Of a stretch of 46,206 nucleotides of DNA, positions 20,935 to 28,816 are shown one piece after another. Each line of letters begins with the position of its first letter. Position 1 is the stretch's first letter. The notes under the pieces are model-generated. The model was not told the DNA's origin. It worked only from the letters and a program-made list of their open reading frames with translations, and searched no databases. Both the position numbers and the translations under genes were made by a program. The stretch is taken from contig JAFIGG010000024.1 of NCBI GenBank assembly GCA_020831485.1, forward strand, positions 1-46,206. The letters are read 5' to 3'. Source of the stretch: Opitutales bacterium (GTDB taxonomy: Bacteria; Verrucomicrobiota; Verrucomicrobiia; Opitutales; Oceanipulchritudinaceae).

Positions 20935-21963
20935 GTGGATTCACCCCCCTACAGCATCGAAGCCAAACATTTGACCAAAATGTATGGCCGCACCCCGGCG
21001 GTCCGCGACCTGTCCTTTCAGGTCCGGCCCGGTGAAGTTGTTGGTTTTCTGGGACCGAACGGAGCCGGCAAGAGCACGACCCTGCGCATTCTCACCGGCC
21101 TGCTAGCCGCGACCTCCGGTGAGGCATGGATCAACGGCATCTCCGTAGCCCGCGAACCCAGTGCGATTAAACGGCAGATAGGCTACATGGCGGAGAACAA
21201 CCCCCTCCCGGAAGACTTTCGGGTATCGGAATACCTCAGATTCCGCGCCCGCCTCAAAGGCGTTCCCAGGCGCGAGCTCCGCAGCCACCTGGATTCGATT
21301 CTCGAAACCTGCGACCTCCACCGCAAAGCCCGGCGCAAGGTCATCGGCGCACTCTCCAAGGGTTTCCGGCAACGGGTCGGCATCGCTGATGCCTTGATTG
21401 GCAATCCACAAATCACCATAATGGACGAGCCCACCATCGGCCTCGATCCCCACCAGGTCATTCTGATCCGCGACCTGATTCAGAATCTCCGGGGCCGGAC
21501 CACTGTCCTGCTTTCCAGTCATATTCTCTCTGAAGTCGAAGTCTGCTGCGACCGCGTGCTGATCCTCAACCAAGGTCGCCTCGTCGCCTCAGGAACCCCC
21601 GCCGAATTGCGCGAAACTTTTGTGCCCGGAGCGACCTACCGCCTGGAAGTGATTGGCCAGCGAACGGTGCTTGAAAGCCTTCTGCAAAAGTACGCCGCCG
21701 ACTGGCGTCACCGCTTTGACCAGACCGACGACCCCAAGGACCTGCGGCTCAGAATCTCCACTGATGAGCGGGATCAAGAGGACCCAACCCAAGCCTTGAC
21801 CAATGCAATTCATGCCAACCCTGAACTGACCCTTCGCGCCTGGCACAAAATCGACCCTAACCTTGAAGACATCTTTCTGATTGCCACCCGCCGAAGCTGG
21901 GAACTTTCCGAAGAAGCCCTGCGCGACAAAAACTCCGGCAACCAACCGGAGGTGATCTCATGA
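20935..21963 (+). CDS. ABC transporter ATP-binding protein, GldA-like
   Basis: ATPase subunit of an ABC-2-type exporter, 342 residues. Walker A is GPNGAGKST, signature LSKGFRQRVGIADAL, Walker B ITIMDEPTIGLDP, and H-loop LLSSHILSEV. A C-terminal extension of about 110 residues (from about 230) with beta structure follows, as in many gliding/export-type ATPases. The start must be GTG 20935: an in-frame stop lies just upstream and the next Met is inside the domain. It is the first gene of a five-gene unit (ATPase, permease, GldG-like, DUF4340, AsmA-like). A weak TTGCAC-17-TGTAAA pair at 20892-20920 could be a promoter. Confidence 0.9.
   Translation: MDSPPYSIEAKHLTKMYGRTPAVRDLSFQVRPGEVVGFLGPNGAGKSTTLRILTGLLAATSGEAWINGISVAREPSAIKRQIGYMAENNPLPEDFRVSEYLRFRARLKGVPRRELRSHLDSILETCDLHRKARRKVIGALSKGFRQRVGIADALIGNPQITIMDEPTIGLDPHQVILIRDLIQNLRGRTTVLLSSHILSEVEVCCDRVLILNQGRLVASGTPAELRETFVPGATYRLEVIGQRTVLESLLQKYAADWRHRFDQTDDPKDLRLRISTDERDQEDPTQALTNAIHANPELTLRAWHKIDPNLEDIFLIATRRSWELSEEALRDKNSGNQPEVIS
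21948..21962 (+). promoter_or_regulatory. Very strong Shine-Dalgarno before the ABC permease gene
   Basis: GGAGGTGATC ends 2 nt before ATG 21960 and matches the anti-Shine-Dalgarno end of 16S rRNA over ten bases, whereas many genes in this window show no clear site. It lies inside the ATPase 3' end, so permease translation is both coupled and independently strong. Confidence 0.7.
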
Positions 21964-26126: not shown

Positions 26127-28816
26127 GGCAGGTTTTCCATAGTAGTTGGCGCAACTGTCTGTGGGGAGCCCGTTGCGGAAGTCAAGCGGTTCGTATTTTG
26201 CTGACTGCTCTAGCCCTCCTGCAGGGAGGCATCGTCCTGTTTGTCGTAATCGGCAAGGAAGTTCCCGTCCCGGCACCGCTTGGCCAATTAATCCTCGATC
26301 GCCTGATCGATGAACACTGGAGCGCCGAGTGGCGCGAACTTGAGCTCGACCTGCTTGGTGGCGTCCGGGCAAAGAACCTGCGGATCTACGATGACGTCAC
26401 CGGCACCTGGATTCTGGACATCGAAAACATCTGGCTGGATCTGGACTTCTGGGAAATCCTGACCGGCCGGGGGCCCGGTTTGAATCGCCTGTATATTTCG
26501 AACGCTCGCATGAACGCTCCGGCGATGTACACCCGCAGCGGGGTCGATGAACGCCTGATCGACCAGATTGCGACCGAAATCGAAATGGGCGGCGACTGGA
26601 TTCAATTTCACCACCTGCAATTTCGCATCGGAGGCCACAATGTGATTTTGTCATCTCCCGACCGCCTGGAGATGGACTGGACGGGAGAGACCCACGACCT
26701 CAACCTCCCCAGCTACCTGCGGCAACTGGTTGTCCGCATCCAGCGGGCGGCGGACCGCGCTCCACAGATGAGTCCGGCCCGAATCATCGGCCAGATCCGC
26801 TCGACCCCTGAAAACGGTTGGAAACTGGATGCATCCCTGGCAGTCAACCGGATCGACCTGCCCTCCGGCTACGGCAGCGCTCACAACGCTGAGTTGATAT
26901 TCGAAGGAGTCGAATGGCCGGACGAGTTGGTGACCGGCAGCTTGCGGATGCGCGCCGGCTGGGTGGGCATCGAAAGCCCCGCCCTGGAAATGTCTGCGAT
27001 TTCCCTCTACCTTCCGAGATTCCGCTTCGAGTCCCGCGAGCACTGGGCGGTGGAAAATCTACAGGCCGAGCTGCGCAAAATCGAGACTCCATGGGTCAAC
27101 CTGAAACAAATCGGTACCCTGCTGTCCATCGACAGTGAGCGCCTGGCGCCCTCCGGAGAAATCCGGGCGGTCTACAATAACAGCCCCTTCCAAGTTCAAT
27201 TTGCAGACTTGCAACCCGACCTCTCCGGCCTGGTTCAAGTCCAGGCGGAGCTGAACGATCTGCCATCCGTTCTCGCCCAGTTCATGGAGCCCGAATGGAT
27301 TGGGTTTGTGCCGGTCACCAAGTCTCCCATCCGGTTAAAAGCCGACCTCAGGCTGGATCCAGGCGGCGTCCCGGAATCCGCTCACTGGCAGGCCAATCTC
27401 GCATCCGTACAATACCGCGAGACCCTGATTCCATTTGTCCGGGCTAAAGGCGTCAGCAACCATGCGAGAACCGAAATCGAACCGGCGGATGTGTGGATCA
27501 GCCCTGACGAGCAGGTGCGGCTGCAATACCACCAGCACTACCCAAATCCAGTCTTTCTTCTGACCGCAATAGGACACAGCCGGCAGCCGTTGCTCAATCC
27601 AATCCTCGATTTCGACTGGTGGTGGCAGATTTGGGAATTTGTCACGCCTGGCGAGAAGCCCGTCTTCGCCGACGTCCGGGTCGCCGGTATCTGGGGACAG
27701 GAAAACCAGGTCCAATCCTGGGTAGGGATAGCCGCCGACGAAGGCTTCTTTCGGGAGCTTCCGCTCAAGCGTCTGGACCTGAGCATCGCCCAGCAACCCG
27801 GGCAGGTAGACCTCTACCGTCTGGACGGCGAAACCGCTGGGGGCCAATTTTCAGGCTCCCTGCACTGGAGACAGCCCGATCCGGGTCAGGGCAATCCCAA
27901 CGATCAATTTTTCCGCGTCAAGGGACAGATGCCTGTTCAAGAACTCAGGCAATTTGCCGGCGAAGGCTTCGACTGGATCGAGGAGATCCGGAGTGATGCC
28001 GCCCCGGAGGTCGACTTTTACCTTGAGCGCAAACAGGCATCCATCGCCGAGGACCACCAGGAAGCCGTCGTCAAGGTGCACCATCCGGCGGATGTCGAAA
28101 TTTTTGGACTCCCCGTTTCCAATCTGAAAACCCTGGCCCGCCACAGCCCTGGGAAGCTGAAACTAAATTCAACCCACTTAAGCTTTATGGATGGATCGGT
28201 CTGGCTGGACCTTAGTATCGACGAACTGGGCAGCGAATTCCCCAGCTTCGCCACCCGTATCCGAGCCCGTGGGGTTGAGCACGAATCCATGCTCAATCTG
28301 TTCCGAGGCCAGTTCCTTGACTGGGAGGAATCCGAACTCATCGCCGTCGGCGACAAACCGGGCAAACACGATAGCGACCTTCGCCTGCGCGGGCGCTTTG
28401 GCGAAACCAACAGCTACCAGGGTTCGGGCCGGAACCGCATCACCGAGGCAGAACTGGGCAAGGTTCGTCTGTTCGGCGAGCTCTCCCGCGCATTGGAAGC
28501 GGTCGGGTTGCCTTTCACATCCCTTCAGCTGGAGACCGCCGAGGCGCACTGGACCCTCGCCGACGGCAAACTCAAGCTCCCCGCAGTGCGTGTCGATGGA
28601 CCCTCAATCCGGCTAAGTGCCCACGGCGAAGTGGGCATCCCGGATACCGATCTAGACTTTGTCGTTCAGGCTTTTGTCATCCGCGGTTTGTTCGGCCTGG
28701 TCCTGCGACCAATGAATCTCGTGCTCGAATTTCGCCTTGGCGGCCAATTGGACGACCCCAGCTGGGGCCTCCGCATCAACCCCTTCCGCTGGCTGGGGAC
28801 GGGAACCGGTCCCTGA
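26123..28816 (+). CDS. Large AsmA/YhdP-like envelope protein
   Basis: 897 residues with one N-terminal membrane segment (about 24-44, ILLTALALLQGGIVLFVVIG). A very long, beta-strand-rich region without further membrane helices follows, which reads like the repeating groove of AsmA-clan (AsmA, YhdP, TamB) proteins. The N-terminal pattern ELDLLGGVRAKNLRIYDDVTGTWILDIENIWLDLDFWEIL is the usual 'where the substrate layer begins' motif of the clan, and the C-terminus (LPAVRVDGPSIRLSAHGEVGIPDTDLDFVVQAFV...LRPMNLVLEFRLGGQLDDPSWGLRINPFRWL) matches the AsmA-like C-terminal region. Related proteins are thought to bridge the periplasm and move lipids. It closes the ABC/GldG/DUF4340 operon (4-nt overlap). 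Family assignment is by pattern, not alignment. Confidence 0.65.
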   Translation: MRQVFHSSWRNCLWGARCGSQAVRILLTALALLQGGIVLFVVIGKEVPVPAPLGQLILDRLIDEHWSAEWRELELDLLGGVRAKNLRIYDDVTGTWILDIENIWLDLDFWEILTGRGPGLNRLYISNARMNAPAMYTRSGVDERLIDQIATEIEMGGDWIQFHHLQFRIGGHNVILSSPDRLEMDWTGETHDLNLPSYLRQLVVRIQRAADRAPQMSPARIIGQIRSTPENGWKLDASLAVNRIDLPSGYGSAHNAELIFEGVEWPDELVTGSLRMRAGWVGIESPALEMSAISLYLPRFRFESREHWAVENLQAELRKIETPWVNLKQIGTLLSIDSERLAPSGEIRAVYNNSPFQVQFADLQPDLSGLVQVQAELNDLPSVLAQFMEPEWIGFVPVTKSPIRLKADLRLDPGGVPESAHWQANLASVQYRETLIPFVRAKGVSNHARTEIEPADVWISPDEQVRLQYHQHYPNPVFLLTAIGHSRQPLLNPILDFDWWWQIWEFVTPGEKPVFADVRVAGIWGQENQVQSWVGIAADEGFFRELPLKRLDLSIAQQPGQVDLYRLDGETAGGQFSGSLHWRQPDPGQGNPNDQFFRVKGQMPVQELRQFAGEGFDWIEEIRSDAAPEVDFYLERKQASIAEDHQEAVVKVHHPADVEIFGLPVSNLKTLARHSPGKLKLNSTHLSFMDGSVWLDLSIDELGSEFPSFATRIRARGVEHESMLNLFRGQFLDWEESELIAVGDKPGKHDSDLRLRGRFGETNSYQGSGRNRITEAELGKVRLFGELSRALEAVGLPFTSLQLETAEAHWTLADGKLKLPAVRVDGPSIRLSAHGEVGIPDTDLDFVVQAFVIRGLFGLVLRPMNLVLEFRLGGQLDDPSWGLRINPFRWLGTGTGP

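What the first reader, a model, noticed from the sequence alone, without database searches (positions are those of the whole stretch)
20935..28816. Five-gene ABC-GldF/GldG-DUF4340-AsmA-like unit: candidate envelope transport machine
Seen: an ABC ATPase (GTG start), an ABC-2 permease (4-nt overlap, near-perfect Shine-Dalgarno), a GldG-like two-helix periplasmic protein, a DUF4340 protein with one anchor, and an 897-residue protein with AsmA-clan features overlapping it by 4 nt. Known: GldAFG supports gliding in Bacteroidota; AsmA/YhdP/TamB proteins are thought to move lipids between membranes. Inference: since no other gliding genes are visible and the AsmA-like protein is translationally coupled to the ABC set, the unit may pull a lipid or glycan from the inner membrane and hand it across the periplasm. 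The coupling of an AsmA-like bridge to a GldG-type exporter is, to my knowledge, not a described system.
Basis: partly seen in the sequence, partly recalled or inferred. Interest (0 to 1): 0.65.

Follow-up and report, generated by a model that had tools for sequence, protein, structure and literature searches.

The report
ABC pump paired with lipid-bridge protein
A set of five neighbouring genes, kept together across much of the Verrucomicrobiota, pairs an ATP-driven membrane pump of unknown cargo with a long lipid-bridge-like protein, which would offer a testable answer to how bacteria power lipid delivery to their outer membrane.

Summary
The five genes exist as described. A-D are an ABC ATPase, an ABC-2 permease, a GldG-like protein and a DUF4340 protein. 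E (26123-28816) is a one-anchor, beta-rich protein related by profile to the AsmA clan. In loci of the same order, E follows the DUF4340 gene in 42 of 48 testable cases. In a phylum sample, E lies downstream of GldG in 36 of 39 genomes of the order and 38 of 62 of other classes, but in 0 of 14 from other orders of the same class. So the unit is probably ancestral to the phylum and has been broken in places.

Limits: genes A-D also occur without E, in other Verrucomicrobiota, on an alphaproteobacterial plasmid and in a Clostridia record. Four genomes of 0.9-1.0 Mb keep GldG but lack a detectable E; two of 0.9 Mb keep E but lack GldG. E is therefore an add-on to a more general machine.

Best reading: an ABC machine coupled to an AsmA-like bridge, probably loading a membrane lipid for the outer membrane. 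Cargo, direction and physical contact are inferred. Gliding is not supported. I found no description in print in the searches named.

The parts
20935..21963 (+). A: ABC ATPase (GldA-like), signature LSKGFRQR, GTG start
   Evidence: ABC_tran 104.1 bits; best NCBIfam model GldA 260.6 bits, below its 402.6 cut-off
21960..22724 (+). B: ABC-2 permease (GldF-like), 6 predicted TM, overlaps A by 4 nt
   Evidence: ABC2_membrane_3 43.7 bits; NCBIfam GldF 126.7 bits, below its 288.5 cut-off; TM count
22742..24208 (+). C: GldG-like subunit, TM at both ends, extracytoplasmic ABC_transp_aux domain (related to the IFT52 GIFT domain)
   Evidence: ABC_transp_aux 61.5 bits, DUF7088 37.8 bits; IFT52 chain in PDB E 8e-10 with the family profile; NCBIfam GldG 59.2 bits, far below its 389.85 cut-off
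24216..26126 (+). D: DUF4340 protein, one N-terminal anchor, tandem DUF4340 units
   Evidence: DUF4340 120 bits in 3 stretches; model mean pLDDT 90.1; residues 471-596 like 4q0y, Z 8.8, rmsd 3.5, 115 aligned
26123..28816 (+). E: AsmA-clan protein, N-terminal anchor and long beta-rich periplasmic part (52 predicted strands), overlaps D by 4 nt
   Evidence: hhalign to E. coli AsmA 85-87% and YhdP C-terminus 41-52%; model mean pLDDT 84.4; 19 of 33 family members, window included, hit Pfam YhdP at E<=0.001
28950..30797 (+). context, not part of the unit: accB-accC-like pair (named by eye)
   Evidence: AccB-like ORF follows E within 1 kb in 20 of 45 testable loci of the relatives set but only 3 of 59 of the named set

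Best explanation
A-D form an inner-membrane ABC machine: two ATPases, a permease dimer, and two extracytoplasmic subunits (GldG-like and DUF4340) that stand on the outer face of the inner membrane. E is a single-anchor AsmA-type bridge reaching across the periplasm. Most likely ATP hydrolysis in A-B, relayed by C and D, drives loading of a membrane lipid (a glycerophospholipid is my first guess) into the groove of E, which carries it towards the outer membrane. Shown: the genes, their conserved order, the AsmA-clan relationship and the beta-rich predicted fold of E. Inferred: subunit numbers, ATP-driven loading, the lipid cargo, the outward direction and contact of C/D with E. Genes A-D are an older, more general machine to which E was added in the Verrucomicrobiota; E can also be encoded apart.
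For: Order A-B-C-D-E across the order: E follows D on the same strand within 700 nt in 42 of 48 testable relatives loci (2 more untestable) and 68 of 71 testable named loci (6 more untestable; the named loci are the best 80 of 352 relatives); at least 13 of the 80 lie on contigs also in the relatives set. Other neighbours are kept less well: AlaS was called in none of the 59+80 loci; AccB follows E in 20 of 45 and 3 of 59. The D/E junction is tight: in 74 of 103 pairs the in-frame start codon nearest to the D stop lies within -20..+30 nt, 13 with the 4-nt overlap (picking the nearest start favours small gaps). In a 240-genome phylum sample E lies within 8 kb downstream of GldG in 36 of 39 (order) and 38 of 62 (other classes) genomes with both listed; of 15 of those 38 read in detail, A, C and E were called in all, B in 13 and D in 13. 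Presence of E and GldG is associated in other classes (104 both, 11 E only, 14 GldG only, 32 neither, not corrected for kinship). E is AsmA-clan by profile with clean controls; its top fold matches are lipid-handling proteins (LptD, ApoB-100) at low TM. The own genome has a separate TamB. A DUF4340 protein counts as essential in V. spinosum (PMC12283558, one passage); whether it lies in an A-D locus was not checked.
Against: No lipid, contact or phenotype data. In other orders of the class E is not next to GldG in 14 of 14 genomes with both listed (some are drafts, some E matches may be paralogues). Of 12 decoupled loci examined, E was called in 11, with no partner shared beyond pairs of one genus. 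Four genomes of 0.9-1.0 Mb keep GldG but have no detectable E; two genomes of 0.9 Mb have E but no GldG. GldG plus DUF4340 with ABC-type neighbours occurs in Bradyrhizobium beside HupE/UreJ and in a Subdoligranulum (Clostridia) record, a group expected, from general knowledge, to have no outer membrane. Neighbouring ABC and AsmA-like genes can work in opposite directions (Veillonella mlaEFD-tolC-tamB).
Confidence: 0.4

Rival explanations
1. A-D and E are separate envelope functions kept in one operon for joint regulation. A-D is an ABC machine doing mechanical or export work of its own, for example for the cell wall; E is an ordinary AsmA-type lipid conduit needing no ATPase.
For: A-D exist without E in other phyla and in small genomes; E exists apart in other orders. 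In two genomes lacking E, the DUF4340 gene is followed by a MurG-like glycosyltransferase gene. No inner-membrane extraction machinery is known for AsmA-like proteins (discussion of PMC10900882, first part). In Veillonella an ABC set and tamB share a locus yet are held to oppose each other. GldG-related archaeal proteins were predicted to belong to a secretion or membrane-remodelling complex (passage of PMC5898192).
Against: D to E is far better kept than other neighbours and recurs in other classes, which is more than expected for loose co-regulation.
Confidence: 0.35
2. The machine moves another amphiphile (lipid-linked glycan, lipid A precursor or lipoprotein) rather than glycerophospholipid.
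For: ABC-2 permeases often export lipid-linked glycans (family knowledge, recalled); the cargo is unconstrained by any search here.
Against: No glycan biosynthesis genes lie inside the unit; AsmA-like proteins studied so far are tied to glycerophospholipid (PMC10900882 discussion).
Confidence: 0.17
3. It is a gliding-motility / type IX secretion ABC complex (true GldA-GldF-GldG).
For: Best NCBIfam models for A, B and C are GldA, GldF and GldG; signature LSKGFRQR resembles GldA's LSKGYRQR (PMC9127263 passage).
Against: All three score below their equivalog cut-offs (260.6/402.6, 126.7/288.5, 59.2/389.85). The unit's GldG occurs in genomes of about 1 Mb and the core in Clostridia. The search for SprA was uninformative.
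Confidence: 0.03

Closest known systems
GldA-GldF-GldG ABC complex of Flavobacterium
   Same: ATPase, ABC-2 permease and GldG-type subunit with the same domains; these are the best NCBIfam models
   Different: Below all three equivalog cut-offs; joined to DUF4340 and an AsmA-clan protein; no tie to gliding found
Four-gene ABC / permease / Gldg family / DUF4340 cassette (annotated so on Bradyrhizobium plasmid p195_1; also Subdoligranulum)
   Same: Same four genes in the same order
   Different: No AsmA-like fifth gene seen next to it; DUF4340 protein shorter (175 aa, and an ORF of at most 441 aa, against 636 aa here); HupE/UreJ follows in Bradyrhizobium
AsmA / YhdP / TamB bridge-like lipid transporters
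   Same: N-terminal anchor, long beta-rich periplasmic part, profile similarity to AsmA and to the YhdP C-terminus
   Different: Shorter than E. coli YhdP and TamB (897 aa against 1266 and 1259); encoded with a GldG-type ABC machine; distinct from the TamB found elsewhere in the same genome
mlaEFD-tolC-tamB operon of Veillonella
   Same: An ABC lipid transporter operon that also encodes an AsmA-like protein (passages)
   Different: MCE-type ABC set, not GldG type; Mla and TamB are held to act antagonistically
LptB2FG-LptC-LptA-LptD LPS export bridge
   Same: Works like it in the proposed scheme: ABC extraction feeding a beta-groove across the periplasm
   Different: Different permease type and bridge family (recalled); analogy only

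Membership tests
GldA/GldF/GldG (gliding ABC complex) | scores above the NCBIfam equivalog cut-offs | tested here: not met
   260.6 of 402.6, 126.7 of 288.5, 59.2 of 389.85 bits
GldA/GldF/GldG (gliding ABC complex) | presence of the gliding/T9SS apparatus in the genome | tested here: inconclusive
   SprA model found nothing, but it rang in none of 14 control genomes either; GldK-N not searched
ABC_transp_aux (PF09822), the GldG-type auxiliary family | score above the Pfam gathering cut-off | tested here: met
   61.5 bits against 34.7; also DUF7088 37.8 against 27.8
DUF4340 (PF14238) | score above the Pfam gathering cut-off | tested here: met
   120.3 bits against 25, three stretches
AsmA clan (AsmA/YhdP/TamB-like) | profile similarity to AsmA-clan members above controls | tested here: met
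   E. coli AsmA 85-87%, YhdP 41-52%, TamB only 4-5%; 7 other E. coli proteins at most 2.2%, 15 reversed/shuffled at most 0.4%
YhdP (PF13116) | score above the Pfam gathering cut-off | tested here: not met
   18.6 bits against 46 for the window protein; 19 of 33 family members match at E<=0.001, best 2.8e-11
AsmA clan (AsmA/YhdP/TamB-like) | single N-terminal inner-membrane anchor | tested here: met
   one strong hydrophobic segment at 25-43 (2.65); a marginal one at 843-861 (1.63) covers a predicted strand and a short helix
AsmA clan (AsmA/YhdP/TamB-like) | continuous open beta-groove spanning the periplasm | tested here: inconclusive
   confident, beta-rich model (52 strands, pLDDT 84.4, pTM 0.60), matches to LptD/ApoB-100 at low TM; no coordinates to inspect
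AsmA clan (AsmA/YhdP/TamB-like) | carries phospholipid between membranes | not testable with these tools
   needs genetics or lipid-binding experiments

The most novel reading that the evidence does not exclude
This is an ATP-powered AsmA-type lipid bridge: the Verrucomicrobiota have a dedicated inner-membrane ABC motor (A-D) that extracts phospholipid and loads it into an AsmA-like bridge (E). Whether AsmA-like proteins elsewhere need such an extraction machine is an open question. The DUF4340 repeats would act as the adaptor between motor and bridge.
Probability: 0.27. Interest if true: 0.85.

Novelty: new variant of a known kind. Interest (0 to 1): 0.6.

Why it matters
How phospholipids are extracted from the inner membrane and handed to AsmA-like bridges is stated as an open question: no data on the mechanism were available, and LptBFG and LolCDE are judged unlikely candidates (discussion of PMC10900882, first of two parts read). 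A conserved operon that ties an ABC machine of unknown cargo to an AsmA-clan protein gives a concrete candidate, and a setting in which ATP dependence can be tested by mutating one gene. It also gives a functional hypothesis for DUF4340, a word found in only two papers of the library searched, one of them counting a DUF4340 protein among the essential genes of Verrucomicrobium spinosum (passage).

Tried and rejected
Gene fusion as proof of contact: some loci gave over-long E or C ORFs (L213, L221, L195, L154). A scan of all ORFs of 500 aa or more in the fetched neighbourhood loci (L061-L199 and L207-L235) found none carrying both D and E, or both B and C. The extensions have no Pfam match, and those of L213 and L221 read like out-of-frame GC-rich sequence over the neighbouring gene, so no fusion is claimed.

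Weak A5-to-TamB match in PDB (9xdc, E 7e-5): hhalign gave E. coli TamB only 4-5%; not used. The PDB fold searches did not list an AsmA-type structure; that absence says nothing.

DUF4340 length and E: the three D ORFs called in E-lacking small genomes are 336-446 aa, against 569-742 aa in most E-bearing loci; the one in L090 has no Pfam match. Tempting as a docking hint, but confounded by genome reduction and few cases.

Gene neighbours of decoupled E: 12 loci examined, E called in 11 (not L229); varied neighbours, shared only between loci of one genus (L086/L235 and L228/L232). Single-sequence search missed E in G021, which the profile then found elsewhere in that genome, so absences rest on the profile search.

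My first adjacency count (35 of 39, 0 of 12, 38 of 54) had left out 26 GldG rows printed; with them the totals are 36 of 39, 0 of 14 and 38 of 62. Genomes whose E or GldG rows were cut from those listings, or have no E row, are not in these counts (for instance 15 of the 26 added rows).

Association of E and GldG uses presence lists at E<=0.001, includes weak matches and ignores kinship; its p-value is not evolutionary evidence.

Paper searches for a description of the unit: 15 of 456 listed; 15 of 19 listed; none describes it in the titles or abstracts listed or the passages read. Most subscription papers are not held. PMC10260701 (passages) proved irrelevant: its hits are an author's name.

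DUF4340 was found in none of the 14 control genomes. Contact or coevolution between D and E was not tested. Phyla beyond Verrucomicrobiota were seen only through two plasmid-collection hits and control genomes.
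Full report
Observation. Two junctions overlap by 4 nt (A/B at 21960, D/E at 26123); B to C and C to D are separated by 17 and 7 nt. The DUF4340 start is ATG 24216. Pfam and hydropathy support an ABC ATPase, a six-helix ABC-2 permease, a GldG-type protein with a TM helix at each end, a single-anchor DUF4340 protein with tandem units, and a single-anchor protein with only a sub-threshold YhdP match.

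What E is. A profile of 56 homologues aligns to E. coli AsmA over about 400 columns at 85-87% probability and to the YhdP C-terminus at 41-52%. TamB scores only 4-5%; seven unrelated E. coli proteins score at most 2.2% and fifteen reversed or shuffled controls at most 0.4%. Of 33 family members, window included, 19 match Pfam YhdP at E<=0.001 and one matches AsmA. The predicted structure is confident (mean pLDDT 84.4, pTM 0.60) and beta-rich, with 52 strands after an N-terminal helix. Foldseek's top rows are LptD and ApoB-100 chains, at low TM-scores. The second look gives ApoB-100 at Z 11.8, rmsd 13.7, 338 aligned, followed by outer-membrane barrels (BtuB Z 9.2, VDAC1 Z 8.9). This fits a long lipid-handling sheet but does not prove a groove. 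The same genome has a separate TamB, so E is not its TamB.

What A-D are. The NCBIfam best hits are GldA, GldF and GldG, all below their cut-offs. The C profile reaches IFT52 in the PDB. The DUF4340 model is confident (pLDDT 90.1); its last part (471-596) resembles 4q0y, a solved protein titled thioesterase-like (Z 8.8, rmsd 3.5, 115 aligned), and more weakly YycH (2fgt, Z 4.6, rmsd 3.9, 98 aligned). The same four genes lie in order on a Bradyrhizobium plasmid, annotated as ABC ATPase, permease, Gldg family and DUF4340, followed by HupE/UreJ, and in a Subdoligranulum variabile (Clostridia) record. Pfam confirmed GldG and DUF4340 in both and the permease in Subdoligranulum; the Subdoligranulum ATPase was read by eye. 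So the core is not specific to Verrucomicrobiota and, in Clostridia, probably not aimed at an outer membrane.

Conservation. Profile search finds E in 49 of 55 genomes, the window's own included; GldG is found in 53 of 55. The six without E are four genomes of 0.9-1.0 Mb that keep GldG (G022, G040, G044, G049) and two in which neither was found (G007, G052). In the fetched loci E follows D on the same strand within 700 nt in 42 of 48 testable cases (59 loci), and in 68 of 71 testable of the 80 named Opitutia/Verrucomicrobiota loci, the best 80 of 352. At least 13 of the 80 lie on contigs also in the first set. By contrast AlaS, an upstream neighbour in the window (named by eye), was called in none of these loci, and AccB follows E in 20 of 45 and 3 of 59. 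The in-frame start codon nearest to the D stop lies within -20..+30 nt in 74 of 103 D/E pairs. In a 240-genome phylum sample E was found in 194 and GldG in 195. Among genomes with both matches listed, E lies downstream of GldG on the same strand within 8 kb in 36 of 39 of the order, 0 of 14 of other orders in the class and 38 of 62 of other classes. Fifteen of the 38 were read in detail: A, C and E were called in all, B and D in 13 each; the D missing from L221 is visible by eye in an overlapping longer ORF. Four class-mates read in the same call have A-D without E next to them. The simplest account is that the five-gene unit is ancestral in the phylum and was split in some orders; that is an inference, no tree was built.

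How it may work. In the proposed scheme A and B hydrolyse ATP and act on the inner membrane, C and D relay the movement on the outer face, and E receives a lipid and carries it across. Only the parts list, its conserved order and the family of E are shown. Two facts lean towards one envelope function: D to E is kept much better than the other neighbours tested, and a DUF4340 protein counts as essential in Verrucomicrobium spinosum (one passage of PMC12283558; its locus was not checked). Against an obligate machine: the split in other orders, the genomes with one part and not the other (including G087 and G107 with E but no GldG), and the core's presence in a group expected to have no outer membrane. 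The Veillonella mlaEFD-tolC-tamB operon shows that an ABC set and an AsmA-like protein can share a locus and be held to oppose each other (passages of PMC10665443). I therefore hold the coupled-machine reading at 0.4 and the separate-functions rival at 0.35; the corrected counts did not change these odds.

Known and new. GldG-type ABC sets and AsmA-like proteins are each known. Their conserved pairing was not found. A discussion of AsmA-like proteins states that no data exist on how they extract lipid from the inner membrane and that LptBFG and LolCDE are unlikely to account for it (PMC10900882, first part of the discussion). In the passages read of the 2026 TamAB structure paper (PMC12800296), ABC transporters are named for the Lpt, Lol and Mla pathways, not for TamAB. 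GldG-related archaeal proteins have been predicted to belong to a secretion or membrane-remodelling complex (passages of PMC5898192). The unit therefore offers a direct test of an open question, and I rate it a new variant of a known kind.

Noticed in passing
L091:7515-8654 and L092:12641-13741: In two genomes of 0.9 Mb that lack E, the GldG-DUF4340 pair is followed directly by a MurG-like glycosyltransferase family 28 gene, a possible link of A-D to cell-wall synthesis.
   Followed up: partly
L227:5763-10674: Bradyrhizobium sp. 195 plasmid p195_1 carries ABC ATPase, permease, Gldg family, a short DUF4340 protein and a HupE/UreJ family gene in a row: a different add-on to the same core.
   Followed up: no
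L151:271-3943: A second ATPase-permease-GldG set, with a longer GldG-like protein (622 aa), lies upstream of the main set; after the main set's DUF4340 no E was called in the remaining 7 kb.
   Followed up: no
window 28950-33199: Downstream lie accB-accC-like genes and two Asp23/AmaP-like genes (named by eye); this block follows E in part of the order only.
   Followed up: partly
L138, L166, L182: D (L138) or E (L166, L182) is split into several ORFs; draft-genome errors or decaying copies.
   Followed up: no
window 33212-34303 (-): A glycerophosphodiester-phosphodiesterase-like ORF (by eye) on the opposite strand near the unit.
   Followed up: no
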